A DNA stretch of 64,000 nucleotides, taken from a bacterium (GTDB taxonomy: Bacteria; Actinomycetota; Thermoleophilia; Solirubrobacterales; Solirubrobacteraceae). Below the pieces are notes generated by a model that saw only the letters and a program-made list of their open reading frames with translations, did no database searches and had not been told where the DNA came from. Every line of letters starts with the position of its first letter. Within the stretch, counting starts at the first letter, position 1. This document shows, piece by piece, positions 19,254 to 27,830 of the stretch. The position numbers and the translations under genes were made by a program. The stretch spans positions 36,274 through 100,273 of the forward strand of contig JAJPKQ010000007.1 of the NCBI GenBank assembly GCA_021323635.1. The letters are read 5' to 3'.

Positions 19254-20006
19254 CTAGCGGGGCTCCTGCTCACCGGCGCCGGCAAGCGCACGCGCGCGCT
19301 CCAGCACCGCATCGATCATCGCCTCGGTGAGGCGGCCGGTGAAGGTGTTCTGCTGGCTGGGATGAAAGCAGCCCAGCAGCCGGTGGCGCCCAAGCGCGAC
19401 CTCGGCGCCGTGGGCAAAGCGCGGTCGCGGGCGCACAGCGCGCGCCTCCTGCTCGAGCAGCCGCAGCGCGGCAGCCCACGCGAAGGCGCCGAGGCAGACG
19501 ATCACGCGTAGCCCGCCGAGGATCTCAAGCTCTGCGCGCACATAGGGCAGGCAGGCGTCGCGCTCGGAGGTGGAGGGACGGTTGGCGGGTGGCGCGCAGC
19601 GCACCGCCGCGGTGATGTAGACGTCGCGTAGGCGCAGCGAGTCGGCGCGATGGCGCGAGCTCGGCGCGCTTGCCAGCCCGGCGCGGTGCAGGGCGGCAAA
19701 GAGGAAGTCGCCGGAGCGGTCGCCCGTGAACATGCGCCCGGTGCGGTTTGCGCCGTGGGCGGCGGGTGCCAGGCCGAGCAGCATGATGCGCGCCTGCGGA
19801 TCGCCGAAGCCCGGCAGCGGGCGGCCCCAGTACTCCTGATCGCGGAAGGCCGCGCGGCGCTCGCGCGCAACCTGCTCGCGCCAGGCCACCAGCCGCTCGC
19901 AGCGCCGGCAGCCGATCACCCGCTCGCCCAGCTGTGCGAGCGCGAGCGCTCTCCCGCTGCTGCAGGCGCCGTCGGGGGCGCCGCTCGAATACGCTTGCGC
20001 AGACAT
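19254..20006 (-). CDS. Uracil-DNA glycosylase, family 5 (UdgB-like, Fe-S)
   Basis: This 250-residue base-excision repair enzyme removes uracil and related deaminated bases. Motif A reads GLAPAAHGANRTGRMFTGD, typical of family 5, where the canonical motif-A Asp is absent. Motif B is HPSQQNTFTGRL. Cysteines in IGCRRCE, VRCAPPAN and DACLPY fit the 4Fe-4S ligand set. The ATG at 20004-20006 shares the palindrome CATG with the start of the divergent lipoprotein gene. The gene is followed closely by the GDPD-like gene. Confidence 0.88.
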   Translation of the reverse strand: MSAQAYSSGAPDGACSSGRALALAQLGERVIGCRRCERLVAWREQVARERRAAFRDQEYWGRPLPGFGDPQARIMLLGLAPAAHGANRTGRMFTGDRSGDFLFAALHRAGLASAPSSRHRADSLRLRDVYITAAVRCAPPANRPSTSERDACLPYVRAELEILGGLRVIVCLGAFAWAAALRLLEQEARAVRPRPRFAHGAEVALGRHRLLGCFHPSQQNTFTGRLTEAMIDAVLERARALAGAGEQEPR

Positions 20007-20436
20007 GCAGCTCACATCCAAGCAGCCGCTGTGCCTGGCCTGTGCGATCGCCTCGGCAGCAGCCCTTGCGGGCTGCGGGGGCACCGTCTCGACGGGCTCC
20101 TACAGCGGCGAAAGCCACGCGGTGGCGGAACGCATCTCAGCGTTCCAGCGCGATGCAACCGAAGCAAGCCAGAAGAAGGTCTGCAATGAAGACCTCTCGG
20201 CCAAGCTGCGCGAGCAGATCGCAAAGTCCGGCAAGGGCTGCGAAGAAGCGCTCAAGGAACAGCTCAAGGCGGTGGAGGACATCACGCTTGAAGTCAAGTC
20301 GATCTCGGTACAGGGCAAGAGCGCAAGCGCGCAGGTGAGCAGCACCTACTCGGGCAAGCCCTGCGCCTCGACCCTGCTGCTCGCCAAGGAAGGCAGCGCC
20401 TGGCGGATCTCGGGGCAGCGCAGCAGCTGCAGGTAG
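20005..20436 (+). CDS. Small secreted lipoprotein, NTF2-like shape
   Basis: The 143-residue protein has a lipoprotein signal peptide ending in the lipobox LAGC (Cys about 24), followed by a Gly/Ser linker. The mature part is an alpha segment followed by beta strands (ITLEVKSISVQ, KSASAQVSSTYS, TLLLAKEGSAWRISG), resembling the NTF2-like cone of DUF4878-type lipoproteins. Four further cysteines could form two disulfides. The start overlaps that of the divergent UDG gene. Function unknown; envelope location is predicted from the lipobox. Confidence 0.75.
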   Translation: MQLTSKQPLCLACAIASAAALAGCGGTVSTGSYSGESHAVAERISAFQRDATEASQKKVCNEDLSAKLREQIAKSGKGCEEALKEQLKAVEDITLEVKSISVQGKSASAQVSSTYSGKPCASTLLLAKEGSAWRISGQRSSCR

Positions 20437-22465: not shown

Positions 22466-24805
22466 CTACGGCCCGCTTGCAAGCGTCAGCGTCCAGGTGG
22501 AGCTGTAGCTGCCCTTGTGGGCATCGGCGGGCACGGCCAGCTTGAGGTAGCTGACCACGCGCGCCGGGCCGACGCCGCTGCCGGGCTGCGCGTCGAAGAT
22601 CTTCACCGGCGCCGGCGCCGGTTCACCGGCGGGGAGGGTGAGCGGGGTGGAGACCGCATTGACCGGCGGGGCGCAGCCGCCTTCCCCGAGGGCAGATTCG
22701 TTGCGCGTGATCGTGAGCGCGCCGGAGGGAAGCGTGGCGCCGGCAACATCCTTGAACGGGGTCGAGGTCGCTTCGATCGACCAGCCGGGCAGCGTAGGCG
22801 ATTCATCGTCGACCGTCAGCAGGAGCGCGCTTTCTGCAACCTCGTTCTTGCCGTTCAGGCGCAGCGCGGGCAGCGCAAGGGTGGGCGGCCCGGCAATCGT
22901 CGCTTCGCCGCTTGCGCAGGAGCTCTCGAAGGAGATGATCTCGCCGCCTTCGCCGACCGCAAAGCCGCGCAGCGCATTCGCGAAGGAGACTCCATGTAGG
23001 GTCTTTGGCGCCGGGTCATAGATCGTGCCGCCGTACTTCGCGGAGACTTCGTTGTAGGGGGTGCTCTCGATCGTGCCGCCTTCGCCGACGCCGAAGCAGA
23101 TACCTGCGGCCGGGCAGCTGCCCGCGTACCAGGTCTCCGTTCGTCGCAGTTCCAGTTCGCTCCAGCTTTCACCGCCGTTTGTCGTCTTGTAGGCGTAGCC
23201 TTCAGCGCCGCCGATCCAGCATTCGGAGGCGCTTGCGCAGTCCGCCGCGTAGAAGGTCATCGTGCGCGGCGAGGTGCGTGCGCTCCAGCCTTCGCCGCCG
23301 TTGGCGCTCGTGTAGATGGCGCCGCCGGCGCCGGCGGCAAGGCAGAAGCTGCCGCTGCAGCTGACCGAGTAGAGCGTTTCTGATCCCAGCGGCCCGCGGC
23401 TGCTCCACGCTTCGCCGCCGTCGGCGCTGGTGTAGACGCCTCCGCCTTCGCCCACCGCCACGCAGGCGCCGGCGCTCGTGCAGGAGACCGCCTCCAGCGT
23501 GCCGCCGCCAAGGGGCGAGCGCGCCGTCCATGCTTCGCCGCCGTCGGCGCTCGTAAGCACGGTTCCGGCGGCGCCGACTGCCACGCAGTCGAGCGCCGAG
23601 GCGCACGAGACGCCGTCGAGCGCCTCCGTCGTCGGGGTGCTGTGCAGGGCCCATTCCGAGCCGTTGCTCGTGGTGATGACGGTGCCGGCGGCGCCGACAG
23701 CAACGCAGGCAACGATGCCCCCGCAGGAGACCGCAGCGAGGTTGGCGGTGGTGGGTGAGGGCGGCTGCACCCAACCCATGCCGCCGCCATCGGAGTTGCG
23801 CAGGATCTCGGCGACCGCGCCGACCGTCACGCAGACCAGCCGCGTGGGGCAGGAGATGCCGTAGAGATTGTCGGTCGTGTCCGCTGAGCCGTGCAGCCAG
23901 GTTGTGCCGCCGTTCTCGCTGTAGAGCATCGTTGCCAGTTCCTGGCCCTTGTCTCCGACGGCGATGCAGCGGATCGTGCTGGTGCAGGCGATCGCATTGA
24001 GTTCGTAGGAGACGGTGGAGGCGCTCGCGCTCCAGGAGGCGCCGCCGGAGCTGCTCTTGAGGATCACCCCGCCGGCGCCGACCGCATAGCAGATCGACCC
24101 GCTTGGGCAGTCGACGCCGTTGAGCTGCGCGGTGCTCCCTGTTTCGCGCGCCATCCAGCCTTCGCCGAAGTTGTCGCTGGTGAGGCTCACCCCGCCGGCG
24201 CCGACCGCCACGCAGATGCCGGTGGGCAGGCAGGAGAGCGCGCGCAGTTCCTGCGCAGTGGACACGCTCACGACGCTGAAGCTTTCACCGCCATTCACAG
24301 AGCGCAGCACCGTTCCGGCGGCGCCCACCGCGACGCAGTCGCTGGTGGTCGGGCAGGAGACCGCGGCGAGGCTGCTCGTGGTCGGAGAGCTGACCGCGCT
24401 CCAAGCTTCGCCGCCGTCGGTCGAGCGCAGGATCGCTCCACCGGCGCCGACCGCCAGGCAGAGGGTCGTGCTCGCACAGGAGACCGAGCGCAGTTCGGCT
24501 GAGCTGGGCGAGGTGCGCTTGCTCCATTCCGGTTCGCCGCTGCTTGCGGTCTGCTCGATCGTGCCTTCGGCCCCGACCGCCACACACCACGCGCTTGTCG
24601 GGCACGAGACGGAATTGATCGTCGCGGTGATGCTGCCGCCCACTGTCTGCGGCTCCCACTCGCAGCCGCTCACCGCAAGCGCGCACACCAGGATTAGGAG
24701 CGCGGCTGGCGCTCGCGCTGCGCCGATGCCCGCGCGGATGCGCCTCAGGCCGCTCGCCTGCGCTCCCCGCGCGTGTGCGCGCTCACGGTCAGAGGCGCTG
24801 GCCAT
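22466..24805 (-). CDS. Surface lipoprotein: about 14 Ycf48/BNR-like propeller repeats plus a C-terminal WxL domain
   Basis: This is a 779-residue protein. A signal peptide ends in a lipobox (LAVSGC). It is followed by about 14 tandem repeats of about 42 residues, with consensus VSCxSxxxCVAVGAGGxI-x-TSADGGExW. Nearly every repeat carries one Cys pair 6-7 residues apart, likely a disulfide per blade; 14 repeats would suit two seven-bladed propellers. The last 160 residues carry a WxL-type domain (LPGWSIEATSTPF, then GSYSSTWTLTLASGP), which in Firmicutes binds peptidoglycan non-covalently. ATG 24805 overlaps the stop of the DUF916-type gene by 17 bases. Ligand unknown. The longer frame upstream of 24805 is out-of-frame read of the neighbour. 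Confidence 0.8.
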   Translation of the reverse strand: MASASDRERAHARGAQASGLRRIRAGIGAARAPAALLILVCALAVSGCEWEPQTVGGSITATINSVSCPTSAWCVAVGAEGTIEQTASSGEPEWSKRTSPSSAELRSVSCASTTLCLAVGAGGAILRSTDGGEAWSAVSSPTTSSLAAVSCPTTSDCVAVGAAGTVLRSVNGGESFSVVSVSTAQELRALSCLPTGICVAVGAGGVSLTSDNFGEGWMARETGSTAQLNGVDCPSGSICYAVGAGGVILKSSSGGASWSASASTVSYELNAIACTSTIRCIAVGDKGQELATMLYSENGGTTWLHGSADTTDNLYGISCPTRLVCVTVGAVAEILRNSDGGGMGWVQPPSPTTANLAAVSCGGIVACVAVGAAGTVITTSNGSEWALHSTPTTEALDGVSCASALDCVAVGAAGTVLTSADGGEAWTARSPLGGGTLEAVSCTSAGACVAVGEGGGVYTSADGGEAWSSRGPLGSETLYSVSCSGSFCLAAGAGGAIYTSANGGEGWSARTSPRTMTFYAADCASASECWIGGAEGYAYKTTNGGESWSELELRRTETWYAGSCPAAGICFGVGEGGTIESTPYNEVSAKYGGTIYDPAPKTLHGVSFANALRGFAVGEGGEIISFESSCASGEATIAGPPTLALPALRLNGKNEVAESALLLTVDDESPTLPGWSIEATSTPFKDVAGATLPSGALTITRNESALGEGGCAPPVNAVSTPLTLPAGEPAPAPVKIFDAQPGSGVGPARVVSYLKLAVPADAHKGSYSSTWTLTLASGP

Positions 24806-25880
24806 GGCCGTAGGCGACCGGCTCGGAGCGCCTGCGCTCGCGACGGCGCACAAACAACAACAGCAGCAGCGAGACCAGCGCGGCGGCGGCGCAGGCGCCT
24901 GCCAGGAGCGCCCAGGGGAGTGGGGTCCGACGGCGCGCTGTGGGAGCAGCGGAGCTGCTGCCGGCCAGCGGCTGACCCAAGCTCGCAGCGGCGCTGATCG
25001 TGACAGCCTGCCCGCAGTCGCTGGCCTGGGCGGCGATGGTGTAGGCGCCGGGCGCAAGCGGTTGAGGCCAGGGCAGCGGGTAGGGGATCGTATCTCCGGG
25101 CAGGATCGCTTCAAGGCGGCGGGAGACTGTCCGCGTCGCCCCCTGCGCGCCATGCAGGGTGACCGTAAGCGCGGGCTTGCAGAGCAGGCGGCCGCCATTG
25201 CGCAGCGCGACGATCACCGCCGCTCGCTGCGTGCCGCCAAGCGGGCCGAGCGAGGCGCCCTCGACCTGGATCTGCGCAGCTGCGGGCCCCGGCACGATCA
25301 CCTCGACGCCGATCACGATGCGCAGGATCTGGGTGATCGAGAAGCGCCCTCCCGAGCGGCTGGGGGTGGCATTCTGAAAGGCGATGCCGGCAAGGTGATC
25401 GCCCGGCTGGGTGCCGCGCGGCACGCGCACCGTGAAGGCGAGGCGGCGCGCGCCCCCGGGCGCCAGGGTCACTCTGGCAAGCGCTGGCGTCACCCAGCGA
25501 CCGGGGCCGTGCATCGCGCTGCCGCGGCTTGAGTAGACGGCCCCCGACGTCACGCCGGTCAGCCCTTCGACGGGGTAGACGAGGATGCTGACGGTGTGCG
25601 ATGAGGAGTTGCGCAGAAGCGCTTCCTCGTGAGCTGTGCCGCCGGCAGCGATGTGCGGACGAAAGTATGAGCGCGTGATCGGTTCGCCGGCGCTGAAGGT
25701 CGCCGGGACGGCGGAGATCCCGCCAAGCTGCGGCGCGCCTTCGCCTGCGAGCGCGCTCGGCGCCGCAGCGGCTGCGAGCGCCAGGATGATGCCGCACCGG
25801 CTCGCCAGAGCGCGGCCTCGCGCCAGCGGGCGCGCTGGCGCAGAGCCGATCATGCCAGCGGGTGGCCGGAGCCCGCTCAT
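24789..25880 (-). CDS. WxL-interacting protein (DUF916-type) with C-terminal membrane anchor
   Basis: This 363-residue protein has an N-terminal signal peptide (hydrophobic core about residues 28-44). An immunoglobulin-like region follows (YFRPHIAAGGTAHEEALLRNSS, shortened here to its start YFRPHIAAGG), with VTLAPGGARRLAFTVRVP and DHLAGIAFQN, which match the DUF916 peptidoglycan-binding domain of WxL-interacting proteins. A second beta domain (about 190-290) precedes a membrane helix and an Arg-rich cytoplasmic tail (FVRRRERRR). In enterococci such proteins bind WxL partners at the cell wall. It lies between two WxL-domain genes, 7 bases after the small one, in one operon. Confidence 0.78.
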   Translation of the reverse strand: MSGLRPPAGMIGSAPARPLARGRALASRCGIILALAAAAAPSALAGEGAPQLGGISAVPATFSAGEPITRSYFRPHIAAGGTAHEEALLRNSSSHTVSILVYPVEGLTGVTSGAVYSSRGSAMHGPGRWVTPALARVTLAPGGARRLAFTVRVPRGTQPGDHLAGIAFQNATPSRSGGRFSITQILRIVIGVEVIVPGPAAAQIQVEGASLGPLGGTQRAAVIVALRNGGRLLCKPALTVTLHGAQGATRTVSRRLEAILPGDTIPYPLPWPQPLAPGAYTIAAQASDCGQAVTISAAASLGQPLAGSSSAAPTARRRTPLPWALLAGACAAAALVSLLLLLFVRRRERRRSEPVAYGHGQRL

Positions 25881-25887
25881 CGCCCGC

Positions 25888-26487
25888 CTATGGGCCGCTC
25901 ACAAGCGAGAATTCCCAGGTAGCGGTGTAGGTGCCCTTGTATGCGTTCCCGGGCACCGTCAGCGACCAGGTTGGTGTGACCGTCTGATTGCCCATGCCGC
26001 TGTTTTCGGCGGCGTCGTACATCTTTGTAGCGGTGGGCATCGTTTCCCCGGCCGGCAGCGTGTAGGGGTAGCTGATCGCGTTTGACGCAAGCGTGCACGT
26101 GGCTCCTGCGTCGCATGCGTCGCTCGGCGCCGAGCCGATCGTCGTCGCCGTGCTCAGCAGGGCATGGGTGCCGTTCTTGAAGACGGTCGATGTCGCGGTG
26201 ATGTTCCACCCCGCCCCGGTGCCGCGGGCGTCGCTGACGTCGAAAGGCTGGCCCTTGGTGATGACGATGTTCTTGCCCGTGATCCTGGTGGCCGGAAAGG
26301 CCACAGCAGCGGGCGTCGATTCGATGAATTCAAAGCCGCCTTCGGTGAGTTCCTCGCTTGCCGCGACGCTCACGCCCGTGGCGCTAGCCTGGCCGGCGAC
26401 GCTGAGCATGCCGGCCGCTGCTGCAACCAGCGCCAGCGCAATCTGCCAGCGCGCCTGAAAAAGAGATCGCAAACCATCCATGGTCAT
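25888..26487 (-). CDS. Small WxL-domain surface protein
   Basis: The 199-residue secreted protein has a signal peptide ending near VAGQASA and then a single WxL-type domain: FDVSDARGTGAGWNITATS carries the first W-x-I motif, and KGTYTATWEFSLVSGP the C-terminal one. These are the two conserved aromatic motifs that bind peptidoglycan. It closely parallels the C-terminus of the propeller protein two genes downstream, including the terminal VSGP/ASGP. First gene of the three-gene WxL operon; ATG 26487 follows a GAGGTC Shine-Dalgarno-like sequence (a second ATG lies at 26481). Confidence 0.8.
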   Translation of the reverse strand: MTMDGLRSLFQARWQIALALVAAAAGMLSVAGQASATGVSVAASEELTEGGFEFIESTPAAVAFPATRITGKNIVITKGQPFDVSDARGTGAGWNITATSTVFKNGTHALLSTATTIGSAPSDACDAGATCTLASNAISYPYTLPAGETMPTATKMYDAAENSGMGNQTVTPTWSLTVPGNAYKGTYTATWEFSLVSGP

Positions 26488-26741: not shown

Positions 26742-27830
26742 CTATGGGATCGCGACTTCGGAGTTGTCGCCGACCATGAAGCGGTAGGCGCGCGGCGCAC
26801 CGCGATCGCGGCCGATGCGCACGTTGCGACCAAGCAGCGAGGACTCGATCCGCCCGTCGATGTCGCTGATCGAGCAGCCCGCCAGCAGGATCGAGTGCTC
26901 GACCTCCGCGCGCTCAAGCGTGCAGCCATCGCCGATCGCCGTATAGGGGCCGATGTAGCAGTCTGAGATCTGGGCGCCCGCGCCGATGATCGCCGGCCCG
27001 CGCACGCGCGTGCGCAGCAGGCGCGCTCCCGCTGCGACCTGCACGCGCCCCTCCACCGTCGTCTCGACCAGCTCGCCCTCCAGCGATGCCCCGATCGCAT
27101 CGAGGATCAGGCGGTTGGCCTCGAGCATGTCTTCGAGCCGGCCGGTGTCCTTCCACCAGCCCTCGACGATGTGCGGCTCGACGCGGCCGCCGCCGTCGAT
27201 GATCGACTGGATCGCATCGGTGATCTCAAGCTCGCCGCGCGCTGACGGCGAGATCGAGCGCGCGGCTGCATGGATGCGTGCCGTGAACATGTACACGCCC
27301 ACGAGCGCGAGGTCGCTCGGCGGCTGCTTGGGCTTCTCGATCAGCCGCACAACGCGCATCGCGCCCCCTGGCGCGCTCGCAAGCTCGGCGACGCCGTAGC
27401 TCTCCGGGTCATCTACAGGGGTGAGCAGGATGAGGGCATCCGGCGCGCTTGCCCTGAAGGCGGCGACGAGATCCTGGATCCCGCCCTGCAGGAGGTTGTC
27501 GCCAAGGTACATCACAAATGAGCTCTCCCCGAGAAAGGGCTCGGCGGTGAGCACCGCGTGGGCCAGGCCGAGCGGCGCCTGTTGGGGGATGTAGGTGATC
27601 TGCGCGCCGAAGCGCTCGCCCGATCCCGCCGCAGCTTCGATCTCCGCCGCTGTCTGCGGGGCGACGATCACGCCGATCTGCGTGATCCCGGCCGCCACGA
27701 GCGCCTCGATGCCGTAGAAGAGAACGGGCTTGTTTGCCACCGGCACCAGCTGCTTTGCGGAGGTGTGGGTGATCGGCCGCAGACGCGTGCCTTCCCCGCC
27801 GGCAAGGATCAGCCCCTTGAGCTCGCTCAT
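26742..27830 (-). CDS. rmlA: Glucose-1-phosphate thymidylyltransferase, long form
   Basis: The 362-residue nucleotidyltransferase makes dTDP-glucose from dTTP and glucose 1-phosphate, the first step of dTDP-rhamnose synthesis. The signature LILAGGEGTRLRP is followed by TSAKQLVPVANKPV, VMYLGDNLL and EITDAIQ. It is about 70 residues longer than RmlA of E. coli, because of a C-terminal left-handed beta-helix part (repeated short hydrophobic units, residues about 245-340) like the StrD-type actinobacterial enzymes. It is separated from rmlD/rmlB by the WxL operon. Confidence 0.92.
   Translation of the reverse strand: MSELKGLILAGGEGTRLRPITHTSAKQLVPVANKPVLFYGIEALVAAGITQIGVIVAPQTAAEIEAAAGSGERFGAQITYIPQQAPLGLAHAVLTAEPFLGESSFVMYLGDNLLQGGIQDLVAAFRASAPDALILLTPVDDPESYGVAELASAPGGAMRVVRLIEKPKQPPSDLALVGVYMFTARIHAAARSISPSARGELEITDAIQSIIDGGGRVEPHIVEGWWKDTGRLEDMLEANRLILDAIGASLEGELVETTVEGRVQVAAGARLLRTRVRGPAIIGAGAQISDCYIGPYTAIGDGCTLERAEVEHSILLAGCSISDIDGRIESSLLGRNVRIGRDRGAPRAYRFMVGDNSEVAIP

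What the first reader, a model, noticed from the sequence alone, without database searches (positions are those of the whole stretch)
22466..26487. WxL surface operon with a propeller-repeat lipoprotein in an actinobacterium
Three coupled genes encode a small WxL protein, a DUF916-type WxL-interacting protein with a membrane anchor, and a lipoprotein with about 14 Cys-paired propeller repeats ending in its own WxL domain. WxL systems are known from Firmicutes such as enterococci and lactobacilli. A Ycf48/BNR-like array fused to a WxL domain is, to my knowledge, not a described partner. Two seven-bladed propellers displayed on the wall would make a large ligand-binding platform. The repeat count and Cys pairing are read from sequence; the complex and ligand are inference.
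Basis: partly seen in the sequence, partly recalled or inferred. Interest (0 to 1): 0.8.

Follow-up and report, generated by a model that had tools for sequence, protein, structure and literature searches.

The report
Double-propeller WxL surface complex
An actinobacterium, probably of the order Solirubrobacterales, carries a three-gene version of the WxL cell-surface system known mainly from lactic acid bacteria and enterococci; its large protein has 14 propeller blades that are predicted to fold as two seven-bladed propellers and would likely bind ligands at the cell wall.

Summary

It is not a lone oddity. WxLIP-like genes occur in 24 of 199 class genomes; 13 of 14 loci fetched from these have WxL genes beside them. 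BNR-propeller WxL proteins recur in Solirubrobacterales with 7 or 14 blades. YVTN propellers occur on WxL too. I found no paper on a propeller-WxL protein, but NCBI already names one "WxL domain-containing".

Particular here: the lipobox (only clear one among 27 large WxL rows), a doubling without trace of the whole-propeller duplication seen in two relatives, and near-equal WxL motif spacing in small and large proteins. Positive charge after the WxLIP helix in most relatives argues for anchoring in the cell's own membrane, against the published host-membrane proposal. Ligand and complex remain inference.

The parts
25888..26487 (-). small WxL protein (CscB-like), 199 aa, signal peptide plus one WxL domain (Pfam match residues 83-199)
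   Evidence: PF13731 E 1.8e-7, 31.8 bits, over cut-off 25; 16 of 16 members of alignment A3, this one included, match PF13731 at E 0.01 or better
26380..26487 (-). predicted signal peptide of the small WxL protein, probable cut after ASA (residue 36)
   Evidence: read from the sequence; no signal-peptide program was run
24789..25880 (-). WxLIP (CscA-like, DUF916 type), 363 aa
25347..25727 (-). WxLIP domain 1 (DUF916 / PGBD, Ig-like), about residues 52-178
24972..25340 (-). WxLIP domain 2 (Ig-like, at the place of DUF3324/HBD), about residues 181-303
   Evidence: fold match only; no Pfam hit to DUF3324
24828..24914 (-). WxLIP C-terminal transmembrane helix, residues 323-351, running into the basic stretch VRRRERRR
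   Evidence: helix in the model, hydropathy 2.6
24789..24805 (-). 17-nt overlap of the WxLIP gene end with the start of the large WxL gene (likely translational coupling)
   Evidence: sequence
22466..24805 (-). large WxL protein (CscC-like), 779 aa: lipobox, two propellers, WxL domain
   Evidence: PF14870 E 8e-19; model pLDDT 75.8
24662..24673 (-). lipobox VSGC, Cys48
   Evidence: Lgt and Lsp genes present in the same genome
23780..24658 (-). N-terminal propeller, about residues 50-342, blades 1-7, all Cys-paired
22919..23779 (-). C-terminal propeller, about residues 343-629, blades 8-14, the last without Cys
   Evidence: repeat listing; this half aligns with the single propeller of relatives; strands in the model, block pLDDT mostly above 85. 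No fold-match row was tied to this half alone
22469..22918 (-). C-terminal WxL domain of the large protein, residues 630-779
   Evidence: 41% identity to the small WxL, E 2e-24; Pfam WxL 12.3 bits, below cut-off

Best explanation
Three tightly coupled genes encode a WxL surface system (small WxL protein, WxLIP and large WxL protein) whose large member carries 14 propeller blades that are predicted to fold as two seven-bladed propellers, and which likely displays them at the cell wall as a platform that binds glycans or proteins outside the cell. Shown by sequence and comparison: the three families, their gene order, the lipobox, 13 Cys-paired blades plus one Cys-less blade, and the C-terminal WxL. 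Predicted: both propellers, and two Ig-like domains plus a membrane helix in WxLIP. Inferred: WxLIP sits in the bacterium's own membrane with its basic tail inside; its DUF916 domain holds the WxL domains against the wall, as the solved E. faecium WxLIP-WxL complex suggests; the large protein would be held at both ends, by a lipid at its N-terminus and by WxL at its C-terminus, so the propellers would lie between membrane and wall surface; the blade hairpins would be closed by disulfides. The ligand is unknown; a polysaccharide is my first guess, because WxL proteins of Lactobacillus brevis and enterococci bind cellulose and xylan (PMC9026416) and most known Asp-box propeller proteins are glycosidases (PMC2716378).
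For: Families. The cluster rule of one WxLIP and two WxL genes side by side (PMC10599100) is met. A WxL-hit ORF lies in 12 of 17 named WxLIP loci and in 13 of 14 class loci fetched (one locus is in both sets). Two propellers: the model and blade counts, with 19 of 23 propeller-WxL rows having 6 Cys-paired blades and 3 having 13; the odd row, L112, has 6 once C-x6-C is allowed. Own-membrane anchoring: of 121 WxLIP proteins 114 have a C-terminal hydrophobic stretch of hydropathy 1.6 or more; of these, 106 have net charge +3 or more after it and 111 are more positive after than before it. Lipid attachment: lipobox, Lgt and Lsp in the genome. WxL-WxLIP contact: PDB 9i25 is titled WxLIP bound to long WxL, and a review says two E. 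[quoted passage not shown]
Against: No binding or complex was tested. The C-terminal WxL of the large protein is below the Pfam cut-off and its fold was not matched to a solved WxL. A clear lipobox is absent from the other 26 large WxL rows (one ambiguous), so lipid anchoring cannot be general. Within the genus the window-type cluster was found in this genome only, so it is dispensable. BNR propellers also occur widely without WxL: of the 118 further relatives of the N-terminal propeller taken from the listed part, only 5 have WxL, so the propeller's function need not depend on WxL. The large-protein model has pTM 0.51, so the placing of the propellers relative to each other is not reliable.
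Confidence: 0.62

Rival explanations
1. The double propeller is a glycan-degrading enzyme. GH74 xyloglucanases are double propellers too (their architecture is recalled), and the WxL part would only anchor the enzyme.
For: GH74 enzymes are among the top Foldseek hits of the whole model (2cn3, 5fkq, 5jwz); NCBIfam F510_1955 glycosylhydrolase hits at E 8.5e-21.
Against: Whole-length GH74 superpositions are poor (rmsd 16.6 to 18.8, TM about 0.3). The F510_1955 score of 74.3 bits is far below its cut-off of 175. Blades follow each other every 40-45 residues, with little room for catalytic loops. Catalytic residues were not tested.
Confidence: 0.13
2. The protein works like Ycf48: a membrane-near factor that helps fold or assemble other envelope proteins, with the lipid keeping it at the membrane.
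For: PF14870 is the best Pfam hit (68.4 bits, cut-off 27); single-propeller match to Ycf48 bound to D1 peptide, TM 0.77 by target length; lipobox; BNR propellers without WxL are common.
Against: The Ycf48 equivalog model scores 69.3 against a cut-off of 326. Here the array sits on a WxL domain in a WxL cluster, and the WxL-bearing relatives have no clear lipobox.
Confidence: 0.12
3. The complex binds the cell's own rhamnose-containing wall polymer rather than an outside ligand, as it lies between genes for dTDP-rhamnose synthesis.
For: An RmlA-like nucleotidyltransferase gene (26742-27830) lies upstream and rmlD and rmlB (22403-20473) downstream on the same strand.
Against: The promoter and terminator scan gave nothing of use.
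Confidence: 0.1

Closest known systems
Csc / WxL clusters of Lactobacillales and Listeria (CscA-CscB-CscC; PMC1534035, PMC9772566, PMC10599100)
   Same: Small WxL, DUF916-type protein with C-terminal membrane helix, large WxL with a variable N-terminal part, side by side.
   Different: No LPxTG partner found nearby. WxL motif spacing is 94 in the small and 93 in the large protein, against about 106 and 68 reported for Firmicutes. The large protein carries propellers and a lipobox.
EfmWxLIP1, PDB 9i25 and 9i1y
   Different: 13% identity; the NQIDK part of the motif is replaced.
Ycf48 / PF14870 propellers
   Same: Seven-bladed propeller fold, TM 0.77 by target length; PF14870 over cut-off.
   Different: Two in a row, Cys-paired blades, fused to WxL; far below the Ycf48 equivalog cut-off.
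Propeller-WxL proteins of other Solirubrobacterales and metagenomes (P0121-P0130, L016, L017, L022, L029, L030, L120)
   Same: Propeller followed by WxL, Cys-less last blade before WxL; in the loci, small WxL and WxLIP genes beside it.
   Different: Mostly one propeller; no clear lipobox; in L029 and L120 the doubling shows as a whole-propeller duplication, here it does not.

Membership tests
[quoted passage not shown]
   definition read in PMC10599100
Csc / WxL gene cluster | WxL domain by Pfam PF13731 | tested here: met
   small protein 31.8 bits, cut-off 25; the large protein's C-terminus alone is below cut-off (12.3) but homologous to the small one, E 2e-24
Csc / WxL gene cluster | Two Trp-x-Leu motifs | tested here: inconclusive
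   Both Trp are present, but third residues differ: WNI and WEF in the small, WSI and WTL in the large protein
Firmicutes WxL1 / WxL2 subtypes | Motif spacing about 106 (small) and 68 (large) | tested here: not met
   94 and 93 here; 93-103 in 13 small; 90-97 in 25 of 26 large, the 26th value (P0121, 151) being a slip of my pattern
WxLIP | DUF916 domain plus second Ig-like domain plus C-terminal membrane helix | tested here: met
   window protein alone is below the PF06030 cut-off, DUF3324 itself not hit by Pfam
WxLIP | Binds WxL | not testable with these tools
   no complex prediction offered; 9i25 shows it for E. faecium by its title only
Csc cluster | LPxTG partner CscD (often, not always, present) | tested here: not met
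   no LPxTG-like C-terminus with hydrophobic stretch in ORFs of 80 aa or more of loci L001-L032, which include the window's cluster; one sortase elsewhere in the genome
Ycf48 equivalog | NCBIfam PRK13684 cut-off 326 bits | tested here: not met
   69.3 bits
F510_1955 glycosylhydrolase equivalog | NCBIfam NF045728 cut-off 175 bits | tested here: not met
   74.3 bits
PF14870 Asp-box propeller family | Pfam cut-off and Asp-boxes in the blades | tested here: met
   68.4 bits, cut-off 27; Asp-box-like motif in 8 of 14 blades by my pattern, which lets position 9 vary; consensus from PMC2716378 (passages); Pfam BNR itself 14.1 bits, below its cut-off
GH74 xyloglucanase | Catalytic acidic residues in the cleft between the propellers (recalled) | not tested
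   fold similarity only
Bacterial lipoprotein | Lipobox plus Lgt and Lsp in the genome | tested here: met
   lipidation itself not testable

The most novel reading that the evidence does not exclude
WxL complexes are anchored in the cell's own membrane through WxLIP, and in this lineage the large WxL protein is anchored at both ends: a lipid at the N-terminus and WxL/WxLIP at the C-terminus hold two propellers as a bridge or sensor between membrane and wall. If so, the proposal that the WxLIP helix inserts into host membranes fails for these bacteria and may fail in general, and whole propellers are interchangeable binding heads of environmental WxL systems.
Probability: 0.33. Interest if true: 0.65.

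Novelty: new variant of a known kind. Interest (0 to 1): 0.5.

Why it matters
WxL systems have been studied mostly in gut and food bacteria, as adhesion and virulence factors. A well-supported set in Solirubrobacterales and related actinobacteria, with interchangeable heads (BNR propeller single or double, YVTN propeller, parts without a Pfam hit), widens the system to other bacteria. It also offers a test of where the WxLIP helix sits: charge after the helix fits the bacterium's own membrane, against the published host-membrane idea. The 8 large WxL proteins of relatives scanned all score below the Pfam WxL cut-off or not at all, so the system is probably under-counted.

Tried and rejected
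Conserved rml neighbourhood as a functional link: rejected as general. The window's rml genes find no like neighbour in the other loci compared (L001-L032; L063-L076, L107-L126, L134-L137), except an RmlA-like gene near L017/L107 and a weak RmlB hit in L137.

The window's doubling as a simple whole-propeller duplication: not supported. Blades seven apart are no more alike than others (p 0.24 with 13 paired blades; 0.29 with 14), while L029 and L120 give 0.00015 and 0.0002. A shared old doubling is not excluded: the window's N half scores 438 and 444 against the N halves of L029 and L120 and 381 and 353 against their C halves; the window's C half scores 332 and 283 against their C halves and 280 and 314 against their N halves. 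The Cys-less last blade biases this.

Horizontal transfer by composition: GC of the operon is like its surroundings; no plasmid match.

PDB sequence matches of the WxL domains: none. The fold matches listed for the large model are propellers, so the WxL part is untested by fold. Papers: the only hit for WxL domain plus beta-propeller (PMC9801417, passages read) is a proteomics list; none of the 12 papers listed (of 270 holding two of the terms) holds 'WxL domain'; one search listed 30 of 95. PMC4449606 (passages) puts DUF916/WxL genes in lactobacilli; the passages name no bifidobacteria.

Rows left out of the blade count: P0131-P0133 and L026, L027 (longer blades, about 50 residues; P0131 has 7 Cys pairs before its WxL), and P0166 and P0199, which looked incomplete. 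Among the 23 rows, P0122 and L017 look like the same protein; L111 is cut by its contig end and lies on a contig of the same length as L019.

Full report
What is there. On the minus strand, 26487 to 22466, three genes follow each other: a small WxL protein (25888-26487), a WxLIP (24789-25880) 7 nt further on, and a large WxL protein whose ATG at 24805 overlaps the WxLIP gene by 17 nt. An RmlA-like nucleotidyltransferase gene lies upstream and rmlD and rmlB downstream on the same strand. The genome search with the small WxL found only the two WxL copies of this operon, and the PF14870 search found only this protein.

How widespread. One search gave 17 named loci; a WxL-hit ORF lies in 12 of them, and 8 of 17 carry a WxL protein with blades matched by my model, two of these weakly (L026, L027). 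L025 and L063 instead carry YVTN-type repeats, with a PKD domain by Pfam in L025. One search found WxLIP in 24 of 199 class genomes, own included (at most ten candidates a genome were scored); of 14 stretches fetched from 14 of the other 23 genomes, 13 have a WxL-hit ORF and none has the BNR blades. In the order, 14 of 232 genomes, own included, hold a WxL like the large protein's; of 20 stretches fetched from 9 of the other 13, 9 stretches in 6 genomes carry BNR-propeller WxL. In the genus, 5 of 24 genomes, own included, have a WxLIP, but the other four are only 30-32% identical, with WxL genes beside them and no blades. In the phylum, 11 of 296 genomes, own included, matched Pfam WxL at E 0.001, 5 over its cut-off. 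BNR propellers are also common without WxL: of the 118 further relatives of the N-terminal propeller listed first (P0134-P0251), 5 have WxL and 14 a lipobox-like start.

Which organism. G411, in the same family, is identical over the 10,000 bases compared to L023, a metagenome assembly titled Solirubrobacterales. So the host is probably a member of that order (Thermoleophilia).

Two doublings. In L029 and L120 the two propellers are 57% and 59% identical to each other, and blades seven apart are far more alike than others (p 0.00015 and 0.0002). In the window the halves are 44% identical over 225 residues and blades seven apart are not special (p 0.24); neighbouring blades are more alike (p 0.00075). 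The WxLIP tree places the window with P0002, P0004 and P0005 (support 100/98) and L029 with L022 (94/93). I take the window's doubling as probably separate; a shared old one is not excluded.

What is particular. The lipobox: among 27 large WxL rows, the window's included, only the window has a clear one; one other (L030, 7892) has a pattern match at a probable signal-peptidase-I site. Lgt and Lsp are in the genome. WxL motif spacing is 94 and 93 residues in small and large protein, and similar in relatives, unlike about 106 and 68 in Firmicutes (PMC9772566, first of four parts read). No LPxTG partner was found in loci L001-L032.

Where WxLIP sits. PMC10599100 (abstract, Results to section 2.4, and Discussion read) proposes that the helix enters host membranes. 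In 121 WxLIP proteins (the window's and the 120 listed), 114 have a C-terminal hydrophobic stretch of hydropathy 1.6 or more; 106 of these have net charge +3 or more after it, and 111 are more positive after than before. Of the seven others one was too short for the scan and six just missed the threshold. This is the pattern of a protein held in its own membrane with the tail inside. It is an inference from sequence.

Function. Siezen and co-workers (PMC1534035, passages) proposed sugar acquisition for Csc complexes. WxL proteins of Lactobacillus brevis and enterococci bind cellulose and xylan (PMC9026416, passages). A review reports WxL binding to peptidoglycan and, in vitro, of E. faecium WxL proteins to their transmembrane partner (PMC5817068, passages). 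I take a ligand-binding, probably glycan-binding, platform as most likely, with enzyme, Ycf48-like helper and own-wall binder as rivals. None was tested.

In print. I found no paper on a WxL protein with a propeller (listings, only part of which were shown). DUF916 genes of Actinomycetota are mentioned as neighbours of Ang-2 genes (PMC12537917, passages).

Verdict. A real, well-supported actinobacterial version of a known surface system, with a recurrent but, as far as I found, undescribed propeller head that is doubled and probably lipidated here: a new variant of a known kind.

Noticed in passing
L025 8525-10669 and L063 2370-4484: Large WxL proteins with YVTN-type propeller repeats and a PKD or PKD-like part: a second, unrelated propeller type fused to WxL (Pfam on L025; L063 by eye).
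   Followed up: partly
L072 615-5690: A 1692-residue open frame with a C-terminal WxL beside a WxLIP in another genome of the class.
   Followed up: no
L120 1-10987: One contig with two WxLIP genes, several WxL frames and a 14-blade large WxL; its genome has 11 WxL matches.
   Followed up: partly
P0002, P0004 (proteins): Close WxLIP relatives, 69% and 65% identical, on contigs of 10-13 kb; none of the 13 hits is as close in its WxL part (best 49%), so their large partner may be longer, different or absent.
   Followed up: no
L130-L137: Four genomes of the window's genus hold a divergent WxL-WxLIP-WxL cluster without propellers.
   Followed up: partly
L031, L032: Two Microbacterium loci with a distant DUF916-like gene and no WxL hit; PMC12537917 places DUF916 genes beside Ang-2 metal-binding genes of Actinomycetota, with Microbacterium maritypicum as its example.
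   Followed up: no
window 20005-20436 (+): Small open frame with a lipobox-like start and a weak Rv0361 C-terminal match below cut-off; its first 80 bases overlap a minus-strand uracil-DNA glycosylase frame.
   Followed up: no
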